Shown in pieces: positions 32,446 to 61,210 of a stretch of 64,000 bases of DNA. The notes under the pieces were generated by a model, which was not told the DNA's origin, made no database searches, and saw only the letters and a list, made by a program, of their open reading frames with translations. A program made the translations under genes and the position numbers. How positions within the stretch are numbered: position 1 is the stretch's first letter; each line of letters starts with the position of its first letter. The stretch comes from Rummeliibacillus pycnus (GTDB taxonomy: Bacteria > Bacillota > Bacilli > Bacillales_A > Planococcaceae), in NCBI RefSeq assembly GCF_002884495.1, contig NZ_KZ614145.1:2370423-2434422 (forward strand), written 5' to 3'.

Positions 32446-32545
32446 GGTTTACTCGCGAGTTTGGGAGATTTACTCGCGCTCTCGGTGGATTTACTCGCGA
32501 GTTTGTTCAGTTTATTTGCGACTTTCGGCGTTTTATTTGCGATTC
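32446..32545. repeat. Phased array A1 (ACTCGCG core, exact 21-bp step)
   Basis: The words ACTCGCG, ACTCGCG, ACTCGCG, ATTTGCG, ATTTGCG begin at 32451, 32472, 32493, 32514 and 32535, every step 21 bp. Downstream to about 32635 it shares the tail ACAATTTAGGT...TTTTGGATTGCT with arrays A2-A4, including a decayed form of the CGCGGC/GCCGCG module. Confidence 0.85.
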
Positions 32546-32640
32546 CAACAATTTAGGTCCTATTCGGTTTCTTTTGGATTGCTTGATCAGGAGTGGCTGC
32601 TATTTCTATCAATCTCTTCCCGGTCAATGGAATCCAAATT

Positions 32641-32671
32641 AAAAAAACTCATCAACAATTGTTGGTGAGTT
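32641..32671 (-). terminator. Terminator of the dehydratase gene
   Basis: ACTCATCAAC/GTTGGTGAGT stem with a run of T on the minus strand. Confidence 0.85.
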
Positions 32672-32684
32672 GGTTTTGATTTTT

Positions 32685-34514
32685 TTAAGCACCTGCTTTG
32701 GTTAAGTTTGATTTTTCGCTGATTTTGGTGTTTGCCATTTTGATGATGGTTTCTTTTATTTCTTCGGGATTTAGATGTAATAATGTCTCCATTACTTTGT
32801 ACAGTTCTTGTTTGTTGATGGGTTCTGCTTTGCCGATGAAGATTTTCGGAAATACTTGCTTTTTCTGAATTTCGTTGTCGTTTAGTAGTTCTTCAAATAG
32901 TTTTTCGCCGGGTCTGATACCTGAAAACTCGATGCCGATTTCCTCTTCCGTATAGCCTGATAGTGTGATTAGATTCTTTGCTAGGTCCACGATTTTAACG
33001 GGCTCCCCCATATTCAAGACGAATACTTCCCCACCTCTTGCCAGCGCACCAGCCTGAAGGACGAGCCGAGATGCTTCCGGAATTGTCATAAAATATCTTG
33101 TCATGTCTGGATGTGTTACTGTTACGGGACCGCCTGCTGCGATTTGCTTTTTGAAGAGTGGGATGACACTGCCACGGCTTCCTAATACATTGCCAAAGCG
33201 GACTGCGACAAATTTTGTAGTGCTCTCTTTTGCTAAATTTTGTACGATCATTTCAGCAAAACGCTTTGTTGCCCCCATAATATTGGGTGGATTGACGGCT
33301 TTATCTGTAGAGACCATGACGAAGCTTGCCACTCCAAATGCATGAGCCGCTTCTGCTACATTTCTTGTTCCGAAGATATTATTCTTCACTGCTTCGGTTG
33401 GGTTTTCTTCCATTAATGGCACATGCTTATGCGCTGCTGCATGATAAACGACATCGGGTAAAAATTTGGCCATGATCTCAAAAATTCTACCTTGATCTTG
33501 AACATCCGCGATGATTGGGATTAACTCTATTTCATCTTGATAGCTGTTTCTTAGCTCCATGTCGATTGTGTAAATACTATTTTCACCATGCCCAAGTAGT
33601 AATAACCGTTTCGGATAGAATTTGCAAATTTGTCGGCAAATTTCAGATCCTATTGACCCCCCTGCTCCTGTTACCAACACTGTTTTCCCTGTTATTTCGC
33701 CAGCAATACTGGTCATGTCTAATTCTACTGGCTCTCTGCCCAATAGGTCTTCCACTTGTACATCTCTCAATTGGTTGATGGAAATTTTCCCTGAAACGAG
33801 GTCTTCTATAGAAGGCATAATCTTCGTTTTTGCTTTTGTTTTTGCACATTCTTCGTAGATTCTTTTAATTTCTAATTTTGTAAGAGAGGGAATTGCAATG
33901 ACAATATTCTCGACTTTTAATTTTTCTACTAGTTTTGGAATGTCTCGAATTTTCCCTTTTACTTCAACTCCGAATATCTGTAACTTTATTTTTTTCGGAT
34001 CATCGTCTACAAATGCAATTGGGTACAGATCAGTTTCTTGATTTTTTAACAATTGTCGAACCACCATCGTACCAGCAGATCCTGCTCCAACGATTAATGT
34101 GCGTTTTTTATCTGGGTTTGGTGCGATAAAACGATCTCGGAAAACTCTCCATGAAAATCTTGAGCCCCCAATAAAAATCACATGCATCATCCAAGTAATT
34201 GCTAAAACACGTATATTCATTTGCTGAAAAGCGATTAGTTGAACAACCGCTGTTGTAAGAAATGAAAATGTCACAGCCTTTACGATAGCTAATAATTCTC
34301 CAATGCTCGCATACTCCCATGCATTTTGATACAAGCGATACATCGTCGCAAAAATGTGATGACTAATTAATAATGTGATAGAACTGACCCAAAGCAATGA
34401 CATCGAATAGGTCTGCATTAGAGGATCTACTAAAAAATACCCAAAGAATATTGCTTCGCAAACAATTATAGAATCTAGTAGCATGAGTAATGGCAGTCTT
34501 TTATTATATGGCAC
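32685..34514 (-). CDS. Membrane UDP-GlcNAc 4,6-dehydratase / CapD-EpsC-PglF family
   Basis: 609 residues. Four N-terminal membrane segments (about 10-115) are followed by a CoA-binding-like Rossmann region (RTLIVGAGSAGTMVVRQLL near residue 140). The catalytic extended SDR domain starts near residue 280 (VLVTGAGGSIGSEICRQI), with VSTDKAVNPPNIMGATKR near 395 giving the TDK-type active site. Enzymes of this family make 4-keto-6-deoxy UDP-sugars for capsule, exopolysaccharide or glycan decoration on the cytoplasmic face. It stands alone between terminators, so the polysaccharide it serves is not shown. Confidence 0.88.
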   Translation of the reverse strand: MPYNKRLPLLMLLDSIIVCEAIFFGYFLVDPLMQTYSMSLLWVSSITLLISHHIFATMYRLYQNAWEYASIGELLAIVKAVTFSFLTTAVVQLIAFQQMNIRVLAITWMMHVIFIGGSRFSWRVFRDRFIAPNPDKKRTLIVGAGSAGTMVVRQLLKNQETDLYPIAFVDDDPKKIKLQIFGVEVKGKIRDIPKLVEKLKVENIVIAIPSLTKLEIKRIYEECAKTKAKTKIMPSIEDLVSGKISINQLRDVQVEDLLGREPVELDMTSIAGEITGKTVLVTGAGGSIGSEICRQICKFYPKRLLLLGHGENSIYTIDMELRNSYQDEIELIPIIADVQDQGRIFEIMAKFLPDVVYHAAAHKHVPLMEENPTEAVKNNIFGTRNVAEAAHAFGVASFVMVSTDKAVNPPNIMGATKRFAEMIVQNLAKESTTKFVAVRFGNVLGSRGSVIPLFKKQIAAGGPVTVTHPDMTRYFMTIPEASRLVLQAGALARGGEVFVLNMGEPVKIVDLAKNLITLSGYTEEEIGIEFSGIRPGEKLFEELLNDNEIQKKQVFPKIFIGKAEPINKQELYKVMETLLHLNPEEIKETIIKMANTKISEKSNLTKAGA

Positions 34515-34594
34515 TTCGAATCCTCCTTCATCTCAAAATTGAATCTACTATATAAACTGTTTCATTATATGGTGCTTTTTTATTACCTATGACT

Positions 34595-34725
34595 AAAAAA
34601 TTCGTTCCTTCGAGAAATTTGGAGAATTTGTGCTGAAATTGATAGTGAAATGGTCTTTAATTTTTTTACAAAACAGTTGAATTTTAAATTTCACTAGGTG
34701 AAATAGGTTAAAAAATTCGTTCCTT
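34595..34725 (-). promoter_or_regulatory. Leader region with 17-bp direct repeat and ATTTCAC palindrome
   Basis: TAAAAAATTCGTTCCTT occurs at 34594-34610 and 34709-34725. Between them is ATTTCAC-TAG-GTGAAAT near 34684-34700. This is the upstream region of the dehydratase gene; function unknown. Confidence 0.4.
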
Positions 34726-34828
34726 ATAGATTTTATAACCTATACAGAAACTGGGGTACACAGTGATAACGCCATGTATATTTGGTATGAATCTGCTGTT
34801 TAAGCTTCGTTTTGAATGTTTTTGTAAT

Positions 34829-34865
34829 AAAAAACCACCTAATCCTTTTAGATTAGGCGGTTTTT
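34829..34865. terminator. Terminator of the VanZ gene
   Basis: AAAACCACCTAATC/GATTAGGCGGTTTTT. The VanZ stop lies inside the hairpin's 5' arm. Confidence 0.85.
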
Positions 34866-35287
34866 CGATGTGGTCTGTTGTTGCTTATCTGTTTCCATCT
34901 TGTCATTGTACTGATCAGTAAGAGTAAAGCTACAGCAGCACTAAAAGAGTCTAGCATCACATCATCGAATGATGATGTTCTTCCGCTTACTAATAATTGA
35001 TGAAATTCATCGGTCCCTGCGTAGAGCGTTGTGCAAAGCCAGGCCCAGAAAAATCGATTTTTCTTAAAGATAAAGTATAACAGGATTGCTAAAAAACCGA
35101 ACACGATGATATGTGCCAGCTTCCGGATGATGAAATTCAAGAAATCCGAAGCTGACTCACTTAATCCCAACGATGATTGAATAATACTCATTGTATTAGA
35201 CCCCGTCGCAGAAGGAGAAGCCGTGATCTTGTAGATTACGATTAGCCATATAATGGCCATGAACGGTGCAAAGTAACTTTTTCTCAT
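34853..35287 (-). CDS. VanZ-family membrane protein
   Basis: 144 residues from the ATG at 35287 (GAAGGA 7-8 nt upstream); a longer frame from 35323 lacks a site. Four membrane segments are seen, with the VanZ hallmarks RKLAHIIVFGFLAILL and TDEFHQLLVSGRTSSFDDVM. VanZ proteins are known from teicoplanin resistance clusters, but in genomes like this they are general envelope proteins of unknown activity. Confidence 0.85.
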   Translation of the reverse strand: MRKSYFAPFMAIIWLIVIYKITASPSATGSNTMSIIQSSLGLSESASDFLNFIIRKLAHIIVFGFLAILLYFIFKKNRFFWAWLCTTLYAGTDEFHQLLVSGRTSSFDDVMLDSFSAAVALLLLISTMTRWKQISNNRPHRKTA

Positions 35288-35417
35288 AAGAACATCCTTC
35301 GATACTTCGTTAGTGAAGAGCATGATGTAAAAAGTTTAGCCTTCTTTACTACATAATATGCGTTGTCTATCGATCAATTCTTTTGAGCTTGTGATGGTTG
35401 TTTTTTTTTAAATAAAA

Positions 35418-35457
35418 TGTGGCCCTAATCCGGAAAATGATTAGAGCCACATTTTTT
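35418..35457. terminator. Terminator of the large GW autolysin
   Basis: GTGGCCCTAATC and GATTAGAGCCAC form an imperfect stem with A/T tracts on both sides. Confidence 0.75.
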
Positions 35458-38138
35458 TAGAATTTCATAACAATTGATGAGCTAATCCAGGCTTTTGTGG
35501 TTGTGCCTGGGATGTAGATTTGATACCAAGTCTTATTGTTTTCGTCTTTTGCTGTTACCACTTGACCTTTGGCATCAGTTACTAGTTTTAGATAGTTGTC
35601 TTTGTTAAGTGTCGTTACAATAGTAGAGTCTTTTGTTGTTGCTTTGTCGCGAACATTACAACCGTCTACGTTTGTGACTGCTAGATTTTGAATGTTTAAA
35701 TAGTCACTTCTAATCCATGCTTGTTCATTGCCATTAAAGCTGACGCGGAACCAGCGACCTTTGAAGTTACCGTTGCTATCTTCATAGTCCCAGATATCTT
35801 TGTTATGACCTAAAATAGCAACTTGCTGTCCTAATGTTAGAGTGCCAATTTGTCGAGCTGCTGTTGCATACGGCATTGAGTAGACAGGGGTAAGTACTGT
35901 TGCTGTCGCCGTGATCCCTTTGTCAAATGTAAAGAATGTATCGGGCTGCGGCTTGTCTGATGGAATGATGTGATCATAGACTATCGAGATCGGTGCTGGA
36001 TTCAACGTACTAATAGGTTGAGCTGCATAGTAGTTACTATCATAAGGTTTCATCTCTTCCATTAGTCTCGCAATGTTGCGACCCCAAGTTTGGTCTGTTG
36101 CATATTTTGTATTCATCCCTGCAATGCTAACACCGTTGTTATAAATGGCACCAGCTTTTAGATATTTGTTGTAGATTGCATCGGCATAGTATTCAAGTCC
36201 AGCTTGTCCAGTTGGAAAATATAAGGCACATGTAAATGGTGCTGAGTCATATGCTTGATAGCCGAAGAAATTGTTTTTATATTGTGAGATTAATGAACTT
36301 CCCCATCCAGTTTCCCAAATAGCATGGGCAAACATAAATTGTGCATTGACCCCATACTTCTCTTGAACTTTCAGAAATGCTGGAATCATTTTATATAGAT
36401 TATTGGTTGTGATGCTAGTTCCTTTTTTCTTTATGAGATAGTCTTGCATTTCTTTCTGCGTAATATTTGAAGTCTTTCTCAAATTCTCTGCTAGATAGTT
36501 GTTCCCTGTTAGATCGGGGGTAATCCAGACGGTTTTACCACCAATAGATCCTTGATAATAAGTAGTACCGTTAATGACTTCTGTTTTCTTAGCAGTAAAG
36601 GCCGTTGCCCGATAGTTTGCAAGCGAGCTATAAACGACGTTATTTGTTGTGCCATTTGAAATATTATAAGCTTTGCCGAAGCCTGTTAGATACAGTTTGA
36701 TATTAGTCGCGGTAGAAGAAGTGATATCTGATAAGGTAACTTGTCCTTTTTCTACCCAACCTACTGCTTTCGTCTTTGTACCGTCTGTTCGACTGATTTC
36801 GTAGTAGGTTTTGTTATCTACCGTAGCTTGTTTAAATACATAGAAGGTTTCCTTTGTATAGGTCGTACCCGCTTCAACTGTTTTGGTTAAATCGGTTAAA
36901 TCTTGATAGATTTTGGTTGTGGTACTTTTAAGTGTGCCGACTTTTGTAATGGCAGTTGCTACAGGTTGTTCCGGTGTTTCTGGTTTTGTTGGATCTGTTG
37001 ATGGATCTGTTGGCTCTTCAGGAGCTGGTGTACTCGGTTTTGTATAGTTTTTGACTTGTGTTGAAGATACCCAAATATTCGTGTTGTTTGTAGTTGTTCC
37101 TTGATACCAAATTTCAGTTCCTGCTTTGAGTGCTTTTTTAATAATGAATTTTTTGTCTTTATAGGCAGTTAATGATTTCTCGATAATGTCGTTTTTGCCT
37201 CCCCATTGAATGCTGTAGCCTGCTCCTGTTCCATTTAAGGCTTGCTCCGTTTTTGGGATTGAGGCCGTTGCTTGCGTTACTGTTTTGATATCTGAACTTT
37301 TGATCCAACCAAATTTAGCGGAGGTGCTAGTTGGATGAGTGCTAAGTTGGAAGTAGATATCTTTGCCAATTGTCGCTTGTTGTGTAATGTAATAGGTTTT
37401 GCCGAGTTTCTTTTCGGTTGCTTGTGATGATTTTTTTAGGTTATGAATGTCTGGATAGATATTGGCAATTTGTGTATTGATGCGACCAAGTCTATTGACC
37501 GATGTAAGTACTGGTTTGACTACTGTTGTTGGTTTTTTCGTTGTGAGCTGATCCGATTTTAACCACACCGTTTGTCCATTTAATGTGCCACTATACCATG
37601 TTTCATTCCCAACTTTTTCAGTTGTTTTTGTATTGAATCGTTTTCCTTTGTCTTTAGATAAAGAAGTGAAAAGGATATTACGCTCTCCACCCCATGGTCT
37701 TGTGTATCCTTTACCTGTTCCCATTATATATCTAGGTGTCGTACTATTTTTGGTAATCGTATACGTTTTGGTTGTAAGATCTTTTGCTTTCACCCACCCA
37801 ACTGCTGGTTGTGTAGAGTTTTTGTAGTTACTCACTTGGTAATAGGTTGTCTTGTTATATACTGCTGTTTTGTTTATGTAATAAGTAAGTTTCAGCTTTT
37901 GGATCCCTGCTGTTGTTCCTTTTGTTGCAGTTGGTGATTTATAAATAATCGCTTTCTCGCTTTTGAGTTGACCCAGTTTACTAGTATTGGTTTGTTTTAC
38001 TTTATTGGTAGGTTGCGTAACAGCTGTCTTTGCATCTGCTTTTAACGCAGGAAGTGCCATCGATATAGAGGATGCAAGCATAGCTGCTGAGATCACTGCT
38101 GTTGTTAACCTTTTCGTTGTCTTTTGATATGAAGACAT
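35457..38138 (-). CDS. GW-repeat N-acetylglucosaminidase autolysin (GH73), large
   Basis: 893 residues with signal peptide to about residue 37. Six GW/SH3-like modules precede the enzyme (about 50-545), ending in phrases such as VGWVKAKDL, TVWLKSDQL, FGWIKSSDI, NIWVSSTQV and VGWVEKGQV, with a PTDPSTDPTKPE linker near 375. The GH73 glucosaminidase domain (about 560-720) carries AHAIWETGWGSSLISQYKNN with the likely catalytic Glu, then FFGYQAYD and MNTKYATD. A C-terminal SH3 region follows (about 745-893). GW modules bind lipoteichoic or wall teichoic acids, so it should act at the wall in daughter-cell separation or turnover. Its paralog is at 43588. Confidence 0.88.
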   Translation of the reverse strand: MSSYQKTTKRLTTAVISAAMLASSISMALPALKADAKTAVTQPTNKVKQTNTSKLGQLKSEKAIIYKSPTATKGTTAGIQKLKLTYYINKTAVYNKTTYYQVSNYKNSTQPAVGWVKAKDLTTKTYTITKNSTTPRYIMGTGKGYTRPWGGERNILFTSLSKDKGKRFNTKTTEKVGNETWYSGTLNGQTVWLKSDQLTTKKPTTVVKPVLTSVNRLGRINTQIANIYPDIHNLKKSSQATEKKLGKTYYITQQATIGKDIYFQLSTHPTSTSAKFGWIKSSDIKTVTQATASIPKTEQALNGTGAGYSIQWGGKNDIIEKSLTAYKDKKFIIKKALKAGTEIWYQGTTTNNTNIWVSSTQVKNYTKPSTPAPEEPTDPSTDPTKPETPEQPVATAITKVGTLKSTTTKIYQDLTDLTKTVEAGTTYTKETFYVFKQATVDNKTYYEISRTDGTKTKAVGWVEKGQVTLSDITSSTATNIKLYLTGFGKAYNISNGTTNNVVYSSLANYRATAFTAKKTEVINGTTYYQGSIGGKTVWITPDLTGNNYLAENLRKTSNITQKEMQDYLIKKKGTSITTNNLYKMIPAFLKVQEKYGVNAQFMFAHAIWETGWGSSLISQYKNNFFGYQAYDSAPFTCALYFPTGQAGLEYYADAIYNKYLKAGAIYNNGVSIAGMNTKYATDQTWGRNIARLMEEMKPYDSNYYAAQPISTLNPAPISIVYDHIIPSDKPQPDTFFTFDKGITATATVLTPVYSMPYATAARQIGTLTLGQQVAILGHNKDIWDYEDSNGNFKGRWFRVSFNGNEQAWIRSDYLNIQNLAVTNVDGCNVRDKATTKDSTIVTTLNKDNYLKLVTDAKGQVVTAKDENNKTWYQIYIPGTTTKAWISSSIVMKF

Positions 38139-38276
38139 GTTGATCCTTCCTTTCTATGAAAATGATGGATTTTTATTAACTATAGCATGGTTTTAAGGGA
38201 TTTGTATAAGGGGAATTTGGAGTTTTATTGAAATATTGATAGATTTGGAGAGGGCGTGGGTTGGAATCTGGAGATT

Positions 38277-38458
38277 ACTCGCGTTCTCGGGTGGTTTACT
38301 CGCGACTTTGGTGGGTTTACTCACGTTCTGGGGTGGTTTACTCGCGACTTTCGGTCATTTACTCTCATTTACAACAATTTAGGTTCTACTTGCTCTCTTT
38401 TGGATTGCTCTCATCGGGCGCGGCTGCTATTTTCGTTGAGCTTCTTTTTTCTGCCGCG
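38277..38458. repeat. Phased array A2 with hairpin module
   Basis: ACTCGCG-type words begin at 38277, 38298, 38319, 38340 and 38361, all steps exactly 21 bp. After a 50-bp tail comes CGCGGC (38419-38424), 28 nt, GCCGCG (38453-38458). It lies upstream of the large autolysin gene and downstream of bdbC. Confidence 0.9.
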
Positions 38459-38482
38459 AATAATGGGGGTGAGTATTTGATT

Positions 38483-38640
38483 ACTCTTGCGTTTGGTGAT
38501 TACTCGCGTTCTCGGGTGGTTTACTCGCGACTTTCGGTCATTTACTCTCATTTACAACAATTTAGGTTCTATCGGATCTCTTTTCGATTGCTCTTATTGG
38601 GCGCGGCTACGATTTTCGTTTAACTCTATTTTCTGCCGCG
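38483..38640. repeat. Phased array A3 with hairpin module
   Basis: Words begin at 38483, 38502, 38523 and 38544 (steps 19, 21, 21). The tail and the CGCGGC (38602-38607), 27 nt, GCCGCG (38635-38640) module are a tandem copy of A2. Confidence 0.88.
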
Positions 38641-38663
38641 ATCAATGGGGGTGAGTATTTGAT

Positions 38664-38864
38664 TACTCTTGCGTTTGGTGATTACTCACGTTCTCGGGTG
38701 GTTTACTCACGACTTTGGTGGGTTTACTCGCGTTCTCGGGTGGTTTACTCGCGACTTTCGGTCATTTACTCTCATTTACAACAATTTAAGTTCTATCGGA
38801 TCTCTTTTCGATTGCTCTCATTGGGCGCGGCTACGATTCCAATCAACCACCAGTTTCTGCCGCG
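38664..38864. repeat. Phased array A4 with hairpin module
   Basis: Words begin at 38664, 38684, 38705, 38726, 38747 and 38768 (steps 20, 21, 21, 21, 21), then CGCGGC (38826-38831), 27 nt, GCCGCG (38859-38864). A3 and A4 differ by two inserted 21-bp units. Confidence 0.9.
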
Positions 38865-38880
38865 GACAATGTTACCATAT

Positions 38881-38919
38881 AAAAAACCAGGAATGTTGTT
38901 AATCCAACATTCCTGGTTA
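38881..38919 (-). terminator. Terminator of bdbDC
   Basis: AACCAGGAATGTTG/CCAACATTCCTGGTT with a T tract on the minus strand. Confidence 0.92.
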
Positions 38920-38926
38920 GTAAACT

Positions 38927-39331
38927 TTATTTACGTTTCCATAGTATGATCATTGAAATGGTGATGATTGTAAAAGCAATGAATGCTAGAAATGGAATCG
39001 TCACGAAACCGAACCAATTGATATATTGTCCAGAGCATGGCACGCCGCTTGAGCATGTTGCGAATTCGTGCATGGACGGAATTTTTTGGAGTGCATAGTG
39101 ATAGGCAGATGTTATCAAGCCAATGATTGAGATTGGTAGAATATATTTATATATATTTTTGTCGTTATGATAAAAAGCAAGTCCAAGGAAGATAACGAGA
39201 GGATACATCATGATTCTCTGATACCAGCAAAGTGTACAGGGGATGAAGCCCATATATTCGCTGAAAAACAGGCTTCCCCCCATCGCAATAATCGATGTAA
39301 TCCATGCTAACAGTAGGGGTTTATTTACCAT
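38927..39331 (-). CDS. bdbC: BdbC disulfide bond formation protein (DsbB-like)
   Basis: 134 residues from the ATG at 39331, which lies inside the end of bdbD (11-nt overlap) with GAGG 6-7 nt upstream; a frame start at 39343 is less likely. Four membrane segments. The two quinone-reductase cysteine pairs are present: CTLCWYQR near residue 38, and C-x5-C in ATCSSGVPCSGQ near residue 98. It reoxidises BdbD with electrons passed to quinone. Overlap indicates translational coupling. Confidence 0.93.
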   Translation of the reverse strand: MVNKPLLLAWITSIIAMGGSLFFSEYMGFIPCTLCWYQRIMMYPLVIFLGLAFYHNDKNIYKYILPISIIGLITSAYHYALQKIPSMHEFATCSSGVPCSGQYINWFGFVTIPFLAFIAFTIITISMIILWKRK

Positions 39332-39962
39332 TTGCAGCCTCATCTACCATTTTCGCAAAGTCATCCATTGTTTTGCCTTTGAATTCTTTACCCCCGATGA
39401 AGATTGAAGGAGTTGCTTGGACTTTTAGTTTGTTTGCTGTTTTCATATCTTTGTCAAAGGCAGCGTTTGCTTTATTTTCCTCGAAAGCTTTTGCTACTTT
39501 TTCAGTTTCATCTTTGCTTGCTACTTTGGATAATAAGGTTTTCAAAAAGGCTTCGTTCATCGTATTTTCTTTACCATCTTTTGTTGTTTGGTTTGCGAAT
39601 AATAATTCATGGAATTTCCAGAACTTCTCGTTGCCCAGTTGTTGATAAACGGTTTCAGCAAATAGTGCTGCCGTTTTGGAATCTGGGGCAATAAATGCAT
39701 AATTCATAAAGTAAAGTTTAGCTTTCCCTGTTTGGACGAATTGCTGAACGATGTAAGGTAAAACATTTTTGTTGAACTCGCTACAATGAGGACATTTATA
39801 ATCACCAAATTCAACAATTTCAACGGGTGCTGATTTTTCACCTAAAAATGGTTGATCCTTATAATCAATCGTCGAAGACTTTCCACTTTTTCCATTTAAC
39901 ATAATCACAGCAATAACACATACTGCTAAAATACCAATAATCCAAAATATTTTTTTAGACAT
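39321..39962 (-). CDS. bdbD: BdbD thiol-disulfide oxidoreductase (DsbA-like)
   Basis: 213 residues with an N-terminal membrane anchor (about 5-22). The DsbA-type thioredoxin fold carries FGDYKCPHCSEFN (CPHC active site near residue 57) and the cis-proline loop VQATPSIFIGG near 180. It introduces disulfides into exported proteins; in Bacillus such pairs serve competence and secreted proteins. GGAGAG precedes the ATG. Confidence 0.93.
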   Translation of the reverse strand: MSKKIFWIIGILAVCVIAVIMLNGKSGKSSTIDYKDQPFLGEKSAPVEIVEFGDYKCPHCSEFNKNVLPYIVQQFVQTGKAKLYFMNYAFIAPDSKTAALFAETVYQQLGNEKFWKFHELLFANQTTKDGKENTMNEAFLKTLLSKVASKDETEKVAKAFEENKANAAFDKDMKTANKLKVQATPSIFIGGKEFKGKTMDDFAKMVDEAANGK

Positions 39963-40014
39963 ATTAAAACTCTCCTTTTCGAACTACATCATGTAGTGTA
40001 ATTAAGTAAAAAAT

Positions 40015-40863: not shown

Positions 40864-40866
40864 ATG

Positions 40867-41280: not shown

Positions 41281-41287
41281 GATTAGG

Positions 41288-42723: not shown

Positions 42724-42737
42724 AATTGATCCTTTCA

Positions 42738-43083: not shown

Positions 43084-43084
43084 A

Positions 43085-43413
43085 GAACAATCCGTTACCA
43101 CATATGATTTCTTATTTAACTTTGACCGCTTAAATATAATATTAGCAAAGCATTTATATGCGCAAGTGGGGTTTCTTTAGAAAATGGTATATCTGATTTT
43201 AGTTTAGAAGAAGCCGTTACGAGAAGAAAAATCATAGAGATCTCAAAAGAAACATATTTAGCATGTGATCATACGAAATTCAATAAAAATGTAATGGTGC
43301 AAATTTGTTCATTAAACGATGTGACGGCAATTGTAACAGATGACAAATTAACAGAAGCCACTGAAAAAAGATTCACGGAAAATGGTGTATCTTTAATAGT
43401 AGCGAAAGCTTAA
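43085..43413 (+). pseudogene. Duplicated C-terminal fragment of the phosphonate DeoR regulator
   Basis: About 330 bp are nearly identical to 55169-55493, the last 108 codons of the DeoR gene. A 5-nt insertion near 43133 breaks the frame, and substitutions are few and mostly synonymous. There is no start, no helix-turn-helix part and no operon. A recent partial duplication or recombination relic. Confidence 0.88.
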
Positions 43414-43450
43414 AAAAATGATAATCGAATACTATTTCCATCAAATAGGA

Positions 43451-45318: not shown

Positions 45319-45412
45319 CGCGGATTCAATTCTTTTTTTCGCGGATTGAAACCCTGATATCGCGGATATTTCATTGTTTTTCGCGGACTATGGTCTCTAT
45401 TTCGCGGATATT
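45319..45412. repeat. Phased array A5 (CGCGGA core, exact 21-bp step)
   Basis: CGCGGA words begin at 45319, 45340, 45361, 45382 and 45403, every step exactly 21 bp, although the spacers are unrelated. The core word differs from A1-A4 but the phase is the same. It lies upstream of the small autolysin gene. Confidence 0.9.
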
Positions 45413-51187: not shown

Positions 51188-51199
51188 TGTATTCTCTCC

Positions 51200-53811: not shown

Positions 53812-54556
53812 AAGCTTCACCAAATAATCTAAAGATATTTTGTCGCTTTACTTGTAATTGCTTCAAAATAAAATTCTCAACAAACAGATCTTGTGGTTTT
53901 GATACGATTTCTTCTGGCGTTCCAAACTGTGCAATTTGAGCATCATTAATAATGACCACTTTGTCTGACATCGTAAGTGCTTCTTCTGGATCATGTGTAA
54001 CAATAATGGTCGTTAAGTTAAATTCTTTCGCAATTGATTTTATTCGCTCTTTGATGGATTCTTTAATCACACCATCAAGTGCGCTTAGTGGTTCATCCAT
54101 TAAGAGAATTTTTGGTTTCATGATGAGGGTTCTAGCGATTGATACACGTTGTTTTTGCCCTCCGGATAATTCATGAATTTTTTTATCTAAATGAGGACCC
54201 AGCTCTAAAAAATCGATATATTTTTGAATTTCTTCTCTAGACATTTTTTCTTTTTTGTTTTTAAATCCATAAGTAATGTTGTCATATGCATTTAAATGAG
54301 GGAAAAGTGCAAAATCTTGAAAAACAATATTAAAATCTCGATTTTTCATTGGCACATTACTTATGTCTTGGTTATTAAATAGTATTTGTCCCTCTGAAAT
54401 AGGTGTCAGTCCTAAAATCATATTTAGTAGGGTAGTTTTGCCACTTCCACTTGGGCCAAGTAGTGAAATAATTTCTCCTTGCTGAAATGTCAAATTCACG
54501 TTTTCAAGAATGACTTTATTTTTATAGCGTTTGCTTACATTTTTTAATTGAAGCAA
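53804..54556 (-). CDS. phnT: 2-aminoethylphosphonate ABC transporter, ATP-binding protein
   Basis: About 250 residues. Walker A GPSGSGKTT, signature LSGGQKQRVSIAR, Walker B ILLMDEPLSALD, switch TIIVTHDPEEA. The start is a TTG at 54556 (8 nt after GGGAGG); a GTG at 54565 lies inside the ribosome binding site. It is the first gene of the operon phnT-permease-phnS-phnW-phnX, and every junction in the operon is tight or overlapping. Confidence 0.85.
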   Translation of the reverse strand: MLQLKNVSKRYKNKVILENVNLTFQQGEIISLLGPSGSGKTTLLNMILGLTPISEGQILFNNQDISNVPMKNRDFNIVFQDFALFPHLNAYDNITYGFKNKKEKMSREEIQKYIDFLELGPHLDKKIHELSGGQKQRVSIARTLIMKPKILLMDEPLSALDGVIKESIKERIKSIAKEFNLTTIIVTHDPEEALTMSDKVVIINDAQIAQFGTPEEIVSKPQDLFVENFILKQLQVKRQNIFRLFGEAYA

Positions 54557-54584
54557 ATCACTCACCTCCCGTTTTCTTACATTT

Positions 54585-54720
54585 AGTATAAAAAAGGAAT
54601 GTAAAGAGAGTAATTATGCTTTGTAAATGTTGAGTAAATGTTGATATAATCATGACAAACTTTTAACTAAGTTATATATAATCATTTTAGAAACTAAAAA
54701 CTGAAAACTAAGAAGAACAG
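54585..54720. promoter_or_regulatory. Divergent control region phnT / DeoR regulator
   Basis: On the plus strand TATAAT lies at 54645-54650 with TTGTAA 18 bp upstream. Two adjacent 11-bp direct repeats, GTAAATGTTGA at 54623-54633 and 54634-54644, fill the space just before this -10 and are candidate binding sites for the regulator. On the minus strand TTACTC, 17 bp, TATACT is a candidate phnT promoter. Confidence 0.5.
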
Positions 54721-54728
54721 GTGATAAA

Positions 54729-55493
54729 ATGTTTCCACTAAAACGGCAACAACTGATTATGGATATTATGTTAGAAGAGAAACTGATGAAGCTTCCAGTA
54801 CTTGCAGAACGTTTAAATATTTCAATTGAAACGCTTCGTCGCGACATTCAAACGCTTGTGCAAGAAGATAAAGTTGAAAAGGTATATGGAGGGATTAAGC
54901 TAAAGGAACTAGAATTAGGTGAATCACTCATTGAACAACGACTAACAACAAACCTAGTCGCAAAAAGAGTGATTGCAAAGAAATGTTGCACCTTTATTCA
55001 AGAAGGTGAATGTATTTTCTTAGATAGTGGCTCGACAACATTACAATTCGTCCAATACATTAAATCGTTTCAGCATTTAACGGTAGTGACAAACTCTTTG
55101 CCAATTGTTATGGAATTATTAGCAAGTCACATTGATGTCATTATGATTGGCGGAAAAATTCGCCACTCGGAACAATCCGTTACCACATATGATTTCTTAT
55201 TTAACTTTGACCGCTTAAATATTAGCAAAGCATTTATATGCGCAAGTGGGGTTTCTTTAGAAAATGGTATATCCGATTTTAGTTTTGAAGAAGCAGTGAC
55301 AAGAAGAAAAATCATAGAAATTTCAAAAGAAACATATCTAGCTTGTGATCATACAAAATTCAATAAGGATGTAATGGTACAAATTTGTTCATTAAACGAC
55401 GTAACGGCTATTGTAACAGATGACAAATTATCAGAAGCCACTAAAAAACGTTTTACTGAAAATGGTGTGTCTTTAATTCTAGCAACAACTTAA
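54729..55493 (+). CDS. DeoR-family regulator of the phosphonate operon
   Basis: 254 residues. DeoR helix-turn-helix at residues 3-55 (FPLKRQQLIMDIMLEEKLMK, LPVLAERLNISIETLRRDI), then the sugar-phosphate-isomerase-like sensor domain with IFLDSGSTTLQFVQYI and ICASGVSLENGISDF. Divergent from phnT, so it is inferred to control 2-aminoethylphosphonate use, with a phosphorylated intermediate as a plausible ligand. A second, broken copy of its C-terminal part is at 43085-43413. Confidence 0.85.
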   Translation: MFPLKRQQLIMDIMLEEKLMKLPVLAERLNISIETLRRDIQTLVQEDKVEKVYGGIKLKELELGESLIEQRLTTNLVAKRVIAKKCCTFIQEGECIFLDSGSTTLQFVQYIKSFQHLTVVTNSLPIVMELLASHIDVIMIGGKIRHSEQSVTTYDFLFNFDRLNISKAFICASGVSLENGISDFSFEEAVTRRKIIEISKETYLACDHTKFNKDVMVQICSLNDVTAIVTDDKLSEATKKRFTENGVSLILATT

Positions 55494-55618
55494 GATAAGC
55501 AGATTCCATTGCTTTTTCTTGGAATCATGATAGTTTTGAGAGAATTCATGTGGGGTATTGTTATTTTTGAAGTCTTAAATTGTAGGCGAGGATTCAATTT
55601 CTTCTGGTTACCACAAAA

Positions 55619-55651
55619 TAAAAGCCCTACCGTTTGTCGGTAGGGCTTTTA
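55619..55651. terminator. Bidirectional terminator
   Basis: AAAAGCCCTACCG/CGGTAGGGCTTTT serves both the DeoR gene and the minus-strand polymerase gene. Confidence 0.95.
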
Positions 55652-55655
55652 TCTA

Positions 55656-56831
55656 TTATTTTCCGAATACTTGTTTGACGACGCGTTCTGCTGCTTTGCC
55701 ATCTTCCCAAACGCAGAATTTTTCGTTAAAGCGGTCGAATTGTTCTTGTGAGTAGTGTCCTTCTTTAAGGGCACGTCCGATTTCTTCAAATAAGTCTTGT
55801 TCGTTTTGAACGATTTTCCCTGGTGCATCTGCTTCGATGTCGATATAGAAACCGCGTAGGCGATCTCGATAATCCTCTAGGTCATACATATAGAAGATAA
55901 TTGGGCGATTTAAGATCGCATAGTCGAAGAATACGGATGAGTAGTCTGTGATTAATAGGTCACTGATTAAGTATAGGTCTGCGATATCATAGTAATTTGA
56001 AACGTCTTTGATAAAATCACCATATTGACTGAAGTCAAAGTTTTCGGATACTAGATAGTGCATACGTGCAAGTAATACAAAATCGTCACCATATTGTTCT
56101 TTTAGTTTTTGAATATCAAATTGGAATTTGAATTTGTACTTTCCTCTTTTGAAGAATTGGTCATCACGCCATGTTGGTGCATAAAGGACAATTTTCTTAT
56201 CATCTGGTATATTCAGCGATTTTCGGATTTTTGCAATTTTCGCTGGATTTTGGTTTTGGAGTGCATCATTACGTGGGTAACCTGAATCAATCATTGGTCC
56301 ACTGAAATGGAATGCACGCGCAAGAATTTCATGAGTATATGGGTTTGGTGCTACAAGATAGCTCCAGTTTTTAGATTCCGCTTTGATGTTCTTGCGGTAT
56401 TTCTTGGTTTTTGTACCAGGCATATGAACTTCTTCGATGTCTGTTCCTAGTTTTTTGAGTGGTGTACCATGCCAAGTTTGAAGATAGACTGTATCTTTTG
56501 GTCGTGTCATCCATTTTGGATAGCGTACGTTGTTAACCCAATATTGTGCACGTGGGAAAGTAAATAACCATTTTAGAGTGAATCGTTTCATATAAGGAAC
56601 GCCCATTTCTTCGAACAATGGGATACTTTCTTTATCAACACTCCAAATTAGTTTATATTCTGGATTATGTTCTTTCATATATTCATAAATGGCTCTTGGA
56701 TTATCGCTATAACGTTTACCATGGAAGCTTTCAAAAATGACCAAGTTTTTAATACGAGGTGCTTTGCGTCCTATAAAGCGGAAAGCCTTCTCAAAATATT
56801 TCTTAAATGTTTTGTTGTTTTTCAACATCAT
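55656..56831 (-). CDS. CDP-glycerol glycerophosphotransferase family protein (TagB/TagF-like), single domain
   Basis: 391 residues. N-terminal Rossmann half with VIFESFHGKRYSDNPRAIYE. The catalytic motifs of the family are TWHGTPLKKLG (residue about 134), SGYPRNDAL (about 215), YAPTWRD and LLITDYSSVFFDYA (about 310). These enzymes transfer glycerol or ribitol phosphate from the CDP donor to a growing teichoic acid at the inner membrane face. It cannot be decided from sequence whether this one primes (TagB) or polymerises (TagF). No strong ribosome binding site precedes the two adjacent ATG codons. Confidence 0.85.
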   Translation of the reverse strand: MMLKNNKTFKKYFEKAFRFIGRKAPRIKNLVIFESFHGKRYSDNPRAIYEYMKEHNPEYKLIWSVDKESIPLFEEMGVPYMKRFTLKWLFTFPRAQYWVNNVRYPKWMTRPKDTVYLQTWHGTPLKKLGTDIEEVHMPGTKTKKYRKNIKAESKNWSYLVAPNPYTHEILARAFHFSGPMIDSGYPRNDALQNQNPAKIAKIRKSLNIPDDKKIVLYAPTWRDDQFFKRGKYKFKFQFDIQKLKEQYGDDFVLLARMHYLVSENFDFSQYGDFIKDVSNYYDIADLYLISDLLITDYSSVFFDYAILNRPIIFYMYDLEDYRDRLRGFYIDIEADAPGKIVQNEQDLFEEIGRALKEGHYSQEQFDRFNEKFCVWEDGKAAERVVKQVFGK

Positions 56832-57123
56832 CTTTTCACTCTTTCATGTGGTATTAAAAAGTTTATGTAAAAAATTAACCTGCCAATTATCATAACATAG
56901 ATAGGCACGTCCATCAATCAGGCTCTATAATCGCAACTTTTAAACTAGGTATATTTGTGTCATTTTGAAGGACAATAAGTTACTGAATTCGTATCGATAA
57001 ATTTAACTAATTTAGAAATTTTCGTCGTTTTTTCATTAAAAAATAATTAAATTGCTCTTATTAGACTCAAAAAAGTGCTACTATACGAAAGGTACTATTT
57101 TAATGTAAACGAGGTGATTTTCG

Positions 57124-60100
57124 ATGATCATAAATGAACTATATGGAAATTTTAAAGAAGTTTTAGATGACCGAAACCATAAAGAAGCCCATCGAAGAAA
57201 TCAATTATACACAAAATACTATGATACATTACCTATTATCGATCATGCCATCTTATATGAAGTTAGGGACGGTCAAAGTGTAACTGATTCCCCTTTCGCA
57301 GTATTCAAATATATTTTAGAACATGACACAGATAAAAAATATCAACATATATGGTCCATTCAATCTTCCGAAGAGTTGGAAAAGGTGATTGCCCCTTATC
57401 GTGAGATGCCAAACGTAACATTTGTTGAACGTAATAGCGAAGATTATTTAAAATGGCTTGTACAAGCACAGTATTTATTGAATAACTCTACTTTCCAATC
57501 ATTCTTCGTTCCTCGACCTGAACAAATCTACATTAATACATGGCATGGAACACCTTTAAAATATATGGGCTATGATATTCCGGGGAATCCTTCTGGAAGT
57601 CAAAATGTCGTTCGTAACTTTTTGAATGCTGATTATATTATTAGTCCAAATGAACATTCTACCCAGCTTTTTGCCAATGCATTCCGTTTAGATGGGATTT
57701 ATGAAGGTTCTATTTTAGAGATGGGTTATCCACGCAATGATTTAACATTCAATTCAAAGCGTGAAGAGATCGTAGCACAATTAAACCAACAAGGTCTGGC
57801 TGTTTCGTCAAACAAGAAGATTGTATTGTACTCTCCTACTTGGAAAGGAACAGATACTAATAACGCTGATGATAATATGAAACAAATTATTGCCGAAATG
57901 GATTATTTAGCGGAACAAATTGGACCTCACTATCATGTGCTGATGAAGGTTCATCCATTCTTATATGATGTAGCCACAAATTACCCAGAGGCTCAAAGTA
58001 GACTCGTATCAGATAAAATGGATATGAATGAATTACTAAGTGTTGTAGATGTTTTAATCACTGACTATTCAAGTGTATTCTTCGACTATTTAGTGACGGA
58101 CAAGCCTATTTTGTTCTATGCATGGGACAAAGACTTATATGCTCAAAATCGTGGTATGTACTTAGATGAAAAAGAACTACCAGGCCCCATTTATGAACAT
58201 ATTCATGATGTAGCGAATGCGATTCTTCATATTGATGATGTTCAAAAAGAATATAAAGATGTTTATCAAACTGCTAAAAAACGTTTTGTCGCTTATGACG
58301 ATGGCAATGTTACGGATCGTTTATATCGTTTAGTATTTAACAAGGAATCTGTAGATGGATTAAAAATTGTACGTTTTGAAAATAAAAAAGAAAAGATTTT
58401 CATCTATCCTGGTGGACTAATCAATAATGGGATCACTAATAGTTTTATCAACCTAACCAATAATATTGATTATGACCGTTACGATGTGACTGCATTTGTA
58501 GCTGCTTCAAGCAAAGAAGAAGTCTTGTATAACCAAAGTCGCATTCATCCAAAAGTACGTTTTCTTTTCAAACCAGGTGTACCCGTTTATACATTCCGGG
58601 AAGCTGTTCTTGATCGACTTATTCGTACACATGGTCTAACACCCAAGTTGAAGCCACACTATCCGACAAAGGCGTATGAACGCGAAATTCGAAGACTCAC
58701 TGGTGGCGTCCATTTTGACTATGCCATTGACTTTAGTGGCTACAGTTATTATTGGTCAAAGCTGATATTAGCATCTAATAGTAAACGTAAAATTTGTTTT
58801 TTACACAGTGATATGAAAGCCGATCGAAATCGTACAGTTAATGGTGTTAAACCACACTATCAAAATTTACTGACCATGTTCTCCGTCTATTATCAATTTG
58901 ATAAATTACTGGCTGTTTCTGAAGCCACTATGGAATTAAATCAATCTAAACTAACAAAATTTACAACAGATGAACAATTTGGTTTTTGTGTAAATACGAT
59001 TGACCCAAATCGGATTTTAAACCCACCTAAAAAAGTATTTGATGAACATAAAGATGTTTCTCATATCGTTTTAACAAATGAAATCGGTCAATGGCAGGCA
59101 TCACTTAAAACTGCTTCTATTTATCAAACACTTGACGAGATTGTTCAAGGAAACCCAACTATCGATCATGTTGTGCGAGTAGATGATGATATCCATGTTT
59201 TGGCTAAATATCACTGGCATAATGAAGATTATTGTAAAATCATGATCAATGATATTTATGTTGGATGGTGTAAGGCATCTCTATTATTGATTAATCCATA
59301 TGACAATGAACAAGATGTAAATATTACGTATCAGGTTATGAATACTTTTGGAAAGCTTACAAACGTATCACCTAAATATTATGTATGGAATTTACCTTTT
59401 GGTGCGCCAGGGGCTCACAAGAAATCTGACGTCACATTTTTCAAAGATATGATTGTACACATTTCAAAAATGGCTGTAACACCACAAGCCTCCTACTACT
59501 TCATATCAATCGATCATCATGAGCTTGGCTGGATCAACAGTAATGCAGTTACCTTATTAGATAAAATAGGGTCAATGGCCAATCGTAATTTTCTTTCACG
59601 TGCCATTGCAAATACCTATGTGCAATTCCACTATAATAAGCATAAGGAATTGATTGATAAAGCGCATCGACTTGCGAAAATAGAGGAAAAAGTAAAACAA
59701 TATGGCTATATTTTAGAAGATATTGATGGCTATAAACTTTTTACAGAGCCTCCAACTAGACCAGATAGTCAAATTGTCAAACATAAAAAAGATTTACGGG
59801 GTAAGCTTATTTATGTTCATAAAAAACAAGTATTTAAAGAGCACGTCTATTACTTTATAAAAAAAGGGAGCTATGTCGAAGGTTGGATTGATAGCCGTAG
59901 TGTTCGATTAGTTCCTGACGATTATTCTGTGTTCATCGATGAAAAGGATATTACGTACCCTGCGATTGTTGAAACAGCTTCAGTTGAAGTATATAAAGAG
60001 CTTCCTACTACAGCAAAAGTTGCTGACTTCTTATTACCGGATGAACTGCATTTAAAAGCAGTAACGGTGAAAAAAGAAATGCGTACAGGGCACGGTCATT

Positions 60101-60723
60101 CTGTATTACTTTATGATGGTGACCAAAAAATTGGCTGGGTAGAGAAAAAAGTTGTAACACCTTATAATTGCTGGATTGATATTCACAACAATATTATTCA
60201 GTTAAATGATGATGATTCCTTTAAATTTGTTACAATGGGTCGTCTATCACCAGAAAAAGCACAAGATAAGCTAATTAAAGCATTTGCTCAAATTCATGAA
60301 GAATACCCAAATACCAAGTTATATCTATTGGGCGATGGCCAGTTAAGAAAATCATTAGATTCCTTAGTAAAAAAATTAAATCTAAAGGATTCCGTATTCT
60401 TAACAGGGCAATTAGATAACCCCTTCTCATTTATGAAGCAATGCGATGTTTTTGTTCTGTCATCAAAATATGAAGGACAGCCAATGGTATTACTCGAAGC
60501 ATTAACATTGAAAATGAAAATTGTCGCAACAAATATTGTTGCAAATCGTGCCGCTTTAGCAAATGGAGACTACGGCTTATTAACCGAAGATACTTCTGTA
60601 GAAAGTATTTATAAAGCGATGAAGAAAATCTATTTAGAACCAAATATGTCATTTAAAGAATTTGACTACCGTACTTATAACCAACAAGCAATTGAAAACT
60701 TCTATCGTGAAATTCGAGATTAG
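57124..60723 (+). CDS. Fused teichoic polymerase / glycosyltransferase with GW-like modules inserted in the GT4 domain
   Basis: 1199 residues. Residues 1-410 are a CDP-glycerol glycerophosphotransferase domain (INTWHGTPLKYMGYDIPG, MGYPRNDLTF, VLITDYSSVFFDYL). Residues about 420-640 look like the N-terminal half of a GT4 enzyme (KIFIYPGGLINNGITNSF, KICFLHSDMKADRNRTVNG, KLLAVSEATM). Residues about 645-1025 hold four GW/SH3-like modules (DIYVGWCKASLLL, ELGWINSNAVTLL, VEGWIDSRSVRLV, IGWVEKKVV). The GT4 C-terminal half then resumes (FKFVTMGRLSPEKAQDKLIK, SKYEGQPMVLLEALTLKM). There is no signal peptide, so these modules are cytoplasmic. GAGGTGA precedes the ATG. Confidence 0.85.
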   Translation: MIINELYGNFKEVLDDRNHKEAHRRNQLYTKYYDTLPIIDHAILYEVRDGQSVTDSPFAVFKYILEHDTDKKYQHIWSIQSSEELEKVIAPYREMPNVTFVERNSEDYLKWLVQAQYLLNNSTFQSFFVPRPEQIYINTWHGTPLKYMGYDIPGNPSGSQNVVRNFLNADYIISPNEHSTQLFANAFRLDGIYEGSILEMGYPRNDLTFNSKREEIVAQLNQQGLAVSSNKKIVLYSPTWKGTDTNNADDNMKQIIAEMDYLAEQIGPHYHVLMKVHPFLYDVATNYPEAQSRLVSDKMDMNELLSVVDVLITDYSSVFFDYLVTDKPILFYAWDKDLYAQNRGMYLDEKELPGPIYEHIHDVANAILHIDDVQKEYKDVYQTAKKRFVAYDDGNVTDRLYRLVFNKESVDGLKIVRFENKKEKIFIYPGGLINNGITNSFINLTNNIDYDRYDVTAFVAASSKEEVLYNQSRIHPKVRFLFKPGVPVYTFREAVLDRLIRTHGLTPKLKPHYPTKAYEREIRRLTGGVHFDYAIDFSGYSYYWSKLILASNSKRKICFLHSDMKADRNRTVNGVKPHYQNLLTMFSVYYQFDKLLAVSEATMELNQSKLTKFTTDEQFGFCVNTIDPNRILNPPKKVFDEHKDVSHIVLTNEIGQWQASLKTASIYQTLDEIVQGNPTIDHVVRVDDDIHVLAKYHWHNEDYCKIMINDIYVGWCKASLLLINPYDNEQDVNITYQVMNTFGKLTNVSPKYYVWNLPFGAPGAHKKSDVTFFKDMIVHISKMAVTPQASYYFISIDHHELGWINSNAVTLLDKIGSMANRNFLSRAIANTYVQFHYNKHKELIDKAHRLAKIEEKVKQYGYILEDIDGYKLFTEPPTRPDSQIVKHKKDLRGKLIYVHKKQVFKEHVYYFIKKGSYVEGWIDSRSVRLVPDDYSVFIDEKDITYPAIVETASVEVYKELPTTAKVADFLLPDELHLKAVTVKKEMRTGHGHSVLLYDGDQKIGWVEKKVVTPYNCWIDIHNNIIQLNDDDSFKFVTMGRLSPEKAQDKLIKAFAQIHEEYPNTKLYLLGDGQLRKSLDSLVKKLNLKDSVFLTGQLDNPFSFMKQCDVFVLSSKYEGQPMVLLEALTLKMKIVATNIVANRAALANGDYGLLTEDTSVESIYKAMKKIYLEPNMSFKEFDYRTYNQQAIENFYREIRD

Positions 60724-60752
60724 TCGAATATTTAAAGAAAATTTGTGAATAG

Positions 60753-60806
60753 AAAAATGCCTGCCCGTGGATATCGGTAGAAACCGATTTTCTGGGCAGG
60801 CATTTT
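60753..60806 (+). terminator. Terminator of the fused polymerase gene
   Basis: AAAATGCCTGCCC/GGGCAGGCATTTT outer stem with an inner ATCGGTAGAAACCGAT hairpin. Confidence 0.9.
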
Positions 60807-60831
60807 ATTTACTTAGACTACTCCCATCATC

Positions 60832-60993
60832 CGCGGCCTATTTTTTCTTTACAATTGAATTCTTGCCGCGATCCATAAGGAGCTTTCTTGGGGGCACTCG
60901 TTACTCACGAGTTTAGTGATTTTACTCGCGTTCTGCGGGGAAATACTCGCGTTCTCCCGTAATTTACTCGCGGATTTTCAAATTGTATCCGCG
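60832..60993. repeat. Phased array A6 with hairpin module
   Basis: CGCGGC (60832-60837), 27 nt, GCCGCG (60865-60870), then ACTCACG, ACTCGCG, ACTCGCG, ACTCGCG and ATCCGCG beginning at 60903, 60924, 60945, 60966 and 60987, every step exactly 21 bp. Between converging genes. Confidence 0.9.
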
Positions 60994-61048
60994 TTTTAGC
61001 TACTTTATGTCCTAGATATCAGCTCAAACCTTAGATGCTCTTATTATC

Positions 61049-61210
61049 CGCGGCCGAATTTTTCTTTACAACCAAAATCTTGCCGCGCTCAATAAAGAGC
61101 ATTCTTGGGTTCAGAGGTTACTCGCGAGTTCAGTGATTTTACTCGCGTTCTGTGGGGAAATACTCGCGTTCTCTCGCAATTTACTCGCGGATTTTCAAAT
61201 TGTATCCGCG
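61049..61210. repeat. Phased array A7 with hairpin module
   Basis: Tandem copy of A6 at a distance of 217 bp. CGCGGC (61049-61054), 27 nt, GCCGCG (61082-61087), then words at 61120, 61141, 61162, 61183 and 61204, again exactly 21 bp apart. Confidence 0.9.

What the first reader, a model, noticed from the sequence alone, without database searches (positions are those of the whole stretch)
32446..61210. Intergenic arrays of CGCG-type words phased at 21 bp, with different core words
By direct counting, five arrays (A1 32451, A2 38277, A5 45319, A6 60903, A7 61120) have five words each at exact 21-bp intervals. A3 and A4 keep 21 bp apart from their first step (19 or 20). A0 (262-330) has 20, 21, 21. 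The core changes between arrays (ACTCGCG, ATTTGCG, CGCGGA, GCGAAT) and the spacers are unrelated, yet the period holds. 21 bp is two turns of B-DNA, so all words face the same side of the helix. That pattern suggests binding by an oligomeric protein, a nucleoid or transcription-blocking function, or an element that expands in 21-bp units. All arrays are intergenic. I know of no description; similar strings may appear in databases as spurious YSR-rich proteins.
Basis: seen in the sequence. Interest (0 to 1): 0.88.

Follow-up and report, generated by a model that had tools for sequence, protein, structure and literature searches.

The report
Two-helix-turn intergenic repeat arrays
The window really holds short DNA words repeated every 21 bases (two turns of the helix) in the gaps between genes; they belong to a published but unexplained class of bacterial repeats, and the new clue is that their A+T and G+C content alternates once per helix turn, as in DNA that is easy to bend or wrap.

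Summary
Genome-wide, 50 of 52 CTCGCG pairs 8-38 bp apart lie exactly 21 bp apart; the reversed-pattern control found none. It is not a new kind: Subirana & Messeguer (2021, PMC8161180) described Bacillus tandem repeats of constant size (20-21 or 52 nt) and variable sequence, noted the two helix turns, and proposed a nucleoid protein or small RNAs.

What I add: (1) in four relatives plus the window, 47 of 339 intergenic gaps hold a repeat, 45 with period 20-21 or its double, in many words; (2) arrays are common between convergent genes, rare between divergent ones, without strand preference; (3) between loci of this genome words are 0.88 and spacers 0.52 identical; (4) AT content alternates every ~10.5 bp, and the published 52-nt repeats show the same wave; (5) copy number differs by whole units between near-identical genomes.

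Best reading: DNA-level bending/wrapping elements at gene ends, bound by an unidentified word-specific protein. Gyrase wrapping is possible, but its cleavage core is not enriched. A tolerated satellite remains a serious rival.

The parts
260..330 (-). A0: four GCGAAT/GCGGAT-type words, steps 20, 21, 21; on the minus strand TTATTCGC-like
   Evidence: not matched by the array model at E 1e-3
32447..32543 (+). A1: five words TTTACTCGCG / TTTATTTGCG at exact 21-bp steps
   Evidence: (E 9.9e-26)
32544..32640 (+). A1 tail, resembles the tail of A2
   Evidence: by eye; D1 (64% over 163 nt including the array)
38274..38370 (+). A2: five words, steps 21
38481..38553 (+). A3: words at 38500, 38521, 38542 preceded by one 19 bp upstream
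   Evidence: tandem copy of A2
38663..38776 (+). A4: words at 38682-38766, steps 21, preceded by one 19 bp upstream
   Evidence: tandem copy of A2
38371..38480 (+). linker between A2 and A3 with inverted CGCGGC...GCCGCG words
   Evidence: alignment of nine such linkers
45319..45409 (-). A5: five CGCGGA words (TCCGCG on the minus strand), steps 21
   Evidence: minus-strand match, E 1.8e-10
60829..60895 (+). linker before A6 with CCGCGG...GCCGCG
60902..60994 (+). A6: five words, steps 21 (first word ACTCACG)
   Evidence: (E 6.1e-40)
61046..61112 (+). linker between A6 and A7, CCGCGG...GCCGCG
   Evidence: 217-bp tandem period
61119..61211 (+). A7: five words, steps 21
   Evidence: (E 1.3e-40)
60757..60812 (.). 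terminator-like hairpin after the left gene; A6-A7 lie between it and the next one
   Evidence: by eye
61267..61307 (.). terminator-like hairpin of the convergent right gene
   Evidence: by eye

Best explanation
The arrays are double-stranded-DNA elements that shape the chromosome at the 3' sides of transcription units. Shown by sequence: the unit is two helix turns (20-21 bp); a word of about 8-14 bp is kept while the spacer drifts; AT-rich and GC-rich patches alternate about every 10.5 bp; arrays are rare between divergent promoters and show no strand preference towards genes. Inferred: copies of a word-binding protein sit side by side on one face of the helix, the phased composition lets the DNA bend or wrap towards them, and the resulting patch acts as a topological or nucleoid anchor between neighbouring genes. 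Copy number changes by unequal exchange or slippage in whole units, which keeps the phase. The protein is not identified.
For: Period: 50 of 52 pairs at 21 in the own genome; 45 of 47 repeat-bearing intergenic gaps (of 339) in four relatives plus the window have best lag 20, 21, 40, 41 or 42; of 585 steps between copies of each array's commonest 6-mer, 490 are 20 or 21. Words 0.882 vs spacers 0.519 identity over 14 loci. AT wave: WW share at the half-unit harmonic 0.341 vs 0.174 in column-permuted arrays, above its null in 42 of 56; Bacillaceae TTTA(C/T)TCGCG arrays have 0.641 of their AT-profile power there; the 52-nt class has h5 share 0.117 vs 0.040 (SD 0.008) for all 27 published consensus units, while array-free intergenic and coding 52-bp windows give 0.047 and 0.040. 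Variable columns follow the wave set by conserved ones: mean r 0.186, 41 of 59 positive, null 0.003 (SD 0.049). Predicted curvature 6.83 vs 4.65 degrees per turn. Placement: convergent 17 of 52, tandem 27 of 216, divergent 3 of 71 gaps (convergent vs divergent p 3e-5); 0 of 58 arrays divergent in named Bacillaceae loci against 30 of 145 gaps. No strand bias: 11 of 22.
Against: No protein, binding assay or phenotype. Many different words occur within one genome (G215), which asks for several proteins or for shape-only recognition. When arrays are collapsed to 13 groups by shared 7-mers the AT-wave test weakens (9 of 13, p 0.057) though curvature holds (p 0.021). In the window itself the spacer-phase test is only 3 of 6 positive. 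The curvature model's parameters are recalled from memory. Tandem vs divergent gaps alone differ only at p 0.07. Arrays are absent at the gatB 3' site of all three congeners examined, so no single array is essential. About a fifth of array RNAs (19 of 90 folds) fold with z below -2, so an RNA role is not excluded.
Confidence: 0.42

Rival explanations
1. Tolerated (selfish or neutral) satellite. 20-21-bp units are born by local duplication, favoured by helix geometry, expand and contract by slippage or unequal exchange, and survive only where they do not break genes or promoters.
For: Copy number differs by whole units between two genomes aligned at 99.1-99.5% (27 vs 14, 5 vs 1, 9 vs 5); long arrays of nearly identical units in G034 and G215; absence from congeners at the gatB site; avoidance of divergent gaps is what harmlessness predicts.
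Against: Words stay constant while spacers of the same age diverge; the decamer TTTACTCGCG recurs at step 20-21 in 48 of 56 scanned stretches from Neobacillus, Peribacillus, Calidifontibacillus and Bacillus species; spacers partly keep the AT phase.
Confidence: 0.27
2. Gyrase wrapping sites: helically phased GC/AT composition favours wrapping on the gyrase C-terminal domains downstream of genes, as BIME-2 elements do in E. coli.
For: The E. coli gyrase motif has two arms with 10.75-bp periodic GC% and gyrase is drawn downstream of transcribed loci; BIME-2 carry gyrase sites (PMC6379681, passages and section 23). Gyrases of E. coli, B. anthracis and M. tuberculosis all prefer 10-11-bp periodic GC (PMC12324340, passages and section 12). 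Arrays have that periodicity and that placement.
Against: The cleavage core G-N-A-N-G-N-N-C-N-T-N-C is not enriched: 47 sites with 5 or 6 of 6 letters against 61.4 expected from dinucleotide shuffles, 0 against 3.8 with all 6. Gyrase alone does not explain conserved words.
Confidence: 0.15
3. Small or sponge RNAs transcribed from the arrays (proposed by Subirana & Messeguer for the 52-nt class).
For: PMC8625621 reports transcription of 52-nt satellites in B. coagulans (passages); 19 of 90 array folds have z below -2.
Against: No sense-strand bias in 22 tandem gaps; mean fold z only -0.49; A6-A7 and several own-genome arrays lie between terminator-like hairpins (by eye). No Rfam family matched the arrays at gathering score.
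Confidence: 0.08
4. Protein-coding heptapeptide repeats.
For: 21 is seven codons; ORFs of 120 and 96 codons overlap A2-A4.
Against: 154 of 585 counted steps are 20 bp, which breaks the frame; arrays occur in either orientation; the two ORFs were not tested against protein libraries.
Confidence: 0.01

Closest known systems
Constant-size, variable-sequence bacterial tandem repeats, 20-21 nt class (Subirana & Messeguer 2021, PMC8161180)
   Same: Unit of 20-21 nt (with some 40-41), several families per genome with different sequence, short conserved signal (TCGCGG in B. weihaiensis), mostly non-coding, abundant in B. simplex and B. muralis, which one search also hit.
   Different: Window arrays are short (about 5 words) with highly degenerate spacers and are grouped in ~180-220 bp super-units. 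Gene context, helical AT phasing and word-versus-spacer constraint were not in the parts of the paper I read.
52-nt class of the same authors
   Same: Constant size near a whole number of helix turns (5 x 10.4), variable sequence, conserved short signals; same AT wave at 10.4 bp.
   Different: Unit length; not found in this window.
BIME/REP elements and strong gyrase sites
   Same: Intergenic, repeated, some bind gyrase (PMC6379681).
   Different: No REP palindrome architecture tested or seen; gyrase cleavage core not enriched.
STAR elements of Staphylococcus (PMC3532100)
   Same: Intergenic direct repeats, locus-specific spacers, copy-number change.
   Different: 14-bp repeat with 40-44 bp spacers, not two helix turns.
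TAACTGA heptamer repeats (PMC4679880)
   Same: Short intergenic word repeats of unknown role.
   Different: Contiguous heptamers, mostly just upstream of start codons.

Membership tests
20-21 nt constant-size bacterial tandem repeats | unit length 20-21 nt | tested here: met
   50 of 52 pairs at 21 in the genome; window arrays
20-21 nt constant-size bacterial tandem repeats | at least four repeats, 60% or more with the same length within 1 nt | tested here: met
   A1, A2, A5, A6, A7 have five words with equal steps; their program SATFIND was not run
20-21 nt constant-size bacterial tandem repeats | short conserved signal inside a variable repeat | tested here: met
   words 0.882 vs spacers 0.519 identity
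20-21 nt constant-size bacterial tandem repeats | several families of the same length and different sequence in one genome | tested here: inconclusive
   clear in G215, G165 and G192; in the own genome one main word family was seen, and only part of the genome was read
20-21 nt constant-size bacterial tandem repeats | not protein coding | tested here: met
   intergenic by ORF calls, 20-bp steps, both orientations
BIME-2 / gyrase sites | 10-11 bp periodic GC composition | tested here: met
BIME-2 / gyrase sites | gyrase cleavage core | tested here: not met
   47 observed vs 61.4 expected; 0 vs 3.8
BIME-2 / gyrase sites | gyrase binding in vivo | not testable with these tools
   needs Topo-Seq or ChIP
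CRISPR | long constant repeat with cas genes | not tested
   unit far too short; no cas search was run

The most novel reading that the evidence does not exclude
The two published constant-size satellite classes (20-21 and 52 nt) and the window's arrays are one class of helically phased DNA: sequence-free except for a lineage's own word, always a whole number of helix turns, built to be wrapped (by gyrase, HU or a dedicated protein) at the 3' sides of genes, and so act as topological insulators that bacteria gain, resize and lose quickly.
Probability: 0.3. Interest if true: 0.82.

Novelty: new member of a known kind. Interest (0 to 1): 0.6.

Why it matters
The constant-size bacterial satellites have had no accepted function; [quoted passage not shown] A shared 10.4-10.5-bp AT/GC wave explains why only 2-turn and 5-turn units are seen and turns the question into simple tests: bending or cyclisation assays, Topo-Seq, and pull-down with array DNA. 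If right, many Gram-positive genomes carry lineage-specific DNA-shape elements at gene ends.

Tried and rejected
Coding heptads: set aside because 154 of 585 steps are 20 bp. Sense-strand RNA or Rho-type element: no strand skew towards genes (11 of 22 by C-G skew, 10 of 22 by pyrimidine skew). Known RNA family: none over the arrays at gathering score, and in 60600-61350 at E up to 5 only weak hits, all below gathering score and none inside A6-A7. First idea that arrays are confined to one family: wrong, since one search found the same word in Bacillaceae-named genomes and one period-20 array in outgroup genome G349. Gyrase cleavage sites: core not enriched. Curvature from phased pyrimidine-purine steps: no excess (p 0.22). 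A regulator encoded beside the arrays: Pfam scan of ten proteins flanking or near window arrays gave surface, sugar-transfer and thiol-redox families and one protein with none; no shared DNA-binding family. Orthologous survey at the gatB 3' site: with lag score 5 or more, one of 30 relatives has a 21-bp array (G244, another word); G002 scored 5.4 at lag 15; G141 shows about 21-bp words by eye at score 3.8; congener G144 scored 4.8 at lag 22 over its terminator hairpin. The first version of that script picked the wrong gene in several genomes and was redone. Literature: five searches before or beside the decisive one did not show another description; one search found PMC8161180.

Controls that weaken: with a poorer gene caller trained on 20-kb pieces, gave 14 of 18 in-family and 2 of 11 outgroup repeats in the 20-22/40-42 class; one in each set looks protein-coding by eye. 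The ten in-family genomes were chosen because they held hits or long contigs, not at random. In one search chains of one array are sometimes counted more than once. In one search, 11 of the 56 arrays were picked by hand.
Full report
Observation. The genome (one contig, 3,851,193 bp) has 52 CTCGCG pairs with gap 2-32, 50 of them at step 21; the pattern read backwards has none. An nhmmer profile grown from one unit finds 35 matches in the window and ten fetched stretches of this genome. Eleven of the 15 loci I listed lie between 2.268 and 2.443 Mb, a surface-polysaccharide and autolysin neighbourhood as far as the window shows.

Anatomy. Arrays of about five words sit in units of about 180-220 bp, repeated one to four times per locus, with a linker carrying two inverted CGCGG words about 30 bp apart. 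Super-units of about 190-220 bp with other words and unrelated linkers exist in G165 and G192. Between 14 loci, word columns are 0.882 identical, spacers 0.519 and linker/tail 0.575 (words vs spacers p 7e-11; spacers vs tail p 0.36), so words are kept and spacers drift like the linker.

Distribution. ACTCGCG pairs occur in 32 of 261 genomes of the same family; some of these are single pairs that look like chance inside genes. The backward control word GCGCTCA turned out to be the word of another genus of the family (G215: 223 and 253 pairs), with steps of chiefly 20 or 21 in the listed rows. In 299 genomes of the class, CTCGCG pairs outside the family are about as common as the control, yet a scan of 84,980 named species genomes for TTTACTCGCG pairs at step 20-21 gave 56 stretches, 48 of them from Neobacillus, Peribacillus, Calidifontibacillus and Bacillus species. 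Two of the eight others, a filamentous cyanobacterium and Anabaena azotica, show longer 21-bp arrays by eye.

Word-agnostic scan. With a gene caller of my own, 47 of 339 intergenic gaps of 100 bp or more in 840 kb of four relatives plus the window hold a repeat; best lags are 20 (2), 21 (10), 40 (8), 41 (9), 42 (16), 39 (1), 11 (1). A first scan gave 34 of 52 in-family intergenic windows with period 20-22 or 40-42 and 0 of 7 in twenty outgroup genomes; a repeat with more outgroup DNA gave 14 of 18 and 2 of 11. Words differ widely, also inside one genome.

Placement. Repeat-bearing gaps: 17 of 52 convergent, 27 of 216 tandem, 3 of 71 divergent; convergent vs divergent p 3e-5, tandem vs divergent p 0.07. 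In 22 tandem gaps of the relatives the array starts a median 32 bp after the upstream stop and 220 bp before the next start, and its composition skew ignores gene direction (11 of 22). In 47 of the 48 named Bacillaceae-type stretches, 0 of 58 counted arrays are divergent against 30 of 145 gaps; there the two distances are 129.5 and 195 bp, and 28 of 44 tandem arrays run against the gene.

Helical composition. If only the 21-bp period mattered, AT content could take any shape within the unit. Instead its power sits at half the unit: WW dinucleotide share 0.341 against 0.174 after permuting unit columns, above its null in 42 of 56 arrays (p 7e-7). Collapsed to 13 word groups it is 9 of 13 (p 0.057). 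Predicted curvature rises from 4.65 to 6.83 degrees per turn (42 of 56; 9 of 13, p 0.021), against 4.20 in array-free gaps. In 36 named Bacillaceae arrays the AT profile has 0.641 of its power at 10.5 bp; in 41 distinct units of this genome 0.405. Variable columns follow the wave fixed by the conserved ones (mean r 0.186, 41 of 59 positive, null 0.003 with SD 0.049), though only 3 of 6 in the window. As an independent test I took the published consensus units of the 52-nt class: AT power at 10.4 bp is 0.117 for all 27 against 0.040 (SD 0.008), beyond all 2000 shuffles; 0.1195 for 25; 0.115 for 20 after removing look-alikes, where it is the largest harmonic in 8 of 20. Natural 52-bp windows give 0.047 and 0.040.

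Turnover. G033 and G034 (20-kb pieces aligning at 99.1-99.5%) share three arrays with 14 vs 27, 1 vs 5 and 5 vs 9 copies and length differences of 251, 84 and 41 bp, close to whole units. Downstream of gatB this genome has an array; three congeners have none, and G244 has one with another word.

Literature. PMC8161180 (parts 1-3 of 5 of the text and the tables read) describes the class and offers a nucleoid protein or small RNAs. The 2020 paper of the authors is not held. Gyrase papers were seen as passages and single sections. In the papers seen I found no statement of helical AT phasing of these satellites; searches cover only the open library.

Mechanism. Shown: phasing, word constraint, AT wave, placement, whole-unit dynamics. 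Inferred: bending or wrapping, a word-binding protein, an insulating or anchoring role. Gyrase is an attractive candidate because gyrases, one of Bacillus anthracis among them, prefer 10-11-bp periodic GC, but its cleavage core is not enriched (47 vs 61.4 expected). A tolerated satellite with a geometric birth bias remains possible. The reading is therefore held at 0.42.

Noticed in passing
window 43085-43437 and 55170-55517: A near-copy (exact over 53 nt, 87% over a further 300 nt) of the 3' part of a DeoR-type regulator gene (54729-55493) lies about 12 kb away without the rest of the gene.
   Followed up: partly
window 12325-21320: LXG-domain protein with a SUKH-type protein next to it, and a 1504-aa multidomain protein with endonuclease I and exo/endonuclease-phosphatase domains: looks like a polymorphic-toxin neighbourhood.
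   Followed up: partly
G000:C1 2.268-2.443 Mb: Eleven of the 15 array loci I listed lie in 4.5% of the chromosome, around surface-polysaccharide, glycerophosphotransferase and GW/SH3 autolysin genes.
   Followed up: partly
linkers of G000 units, e.g. window 60829-60895 and 61046-61112: Two inverted CCGCGG/GCCGCG words about 30 bp apart are invariant or nearly so in nine aligned linkers and could form a hairpin or cruciform.
   Followed up: partly
window 38261-38623 and 38659-38949: ORFs of 120 and 96 codons running over arrays A2-A4, likely to be annotated as spurious proteins.
   Followed up: no
L278 and L304: Arrays with GCGCGAGTAAAG and CCGCGAGTA words at about 21 bp in two cyanobacteria (Phorm 6, Anabaena azotica).
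   Followed up: no
L253, L256, L280: TTTACTCGCG pairs 21 bp apart in the same sequence setting in Marivita and an alphaproteobacterial MAG; they look like a conserved operator rather than an array.
   Followed up: no
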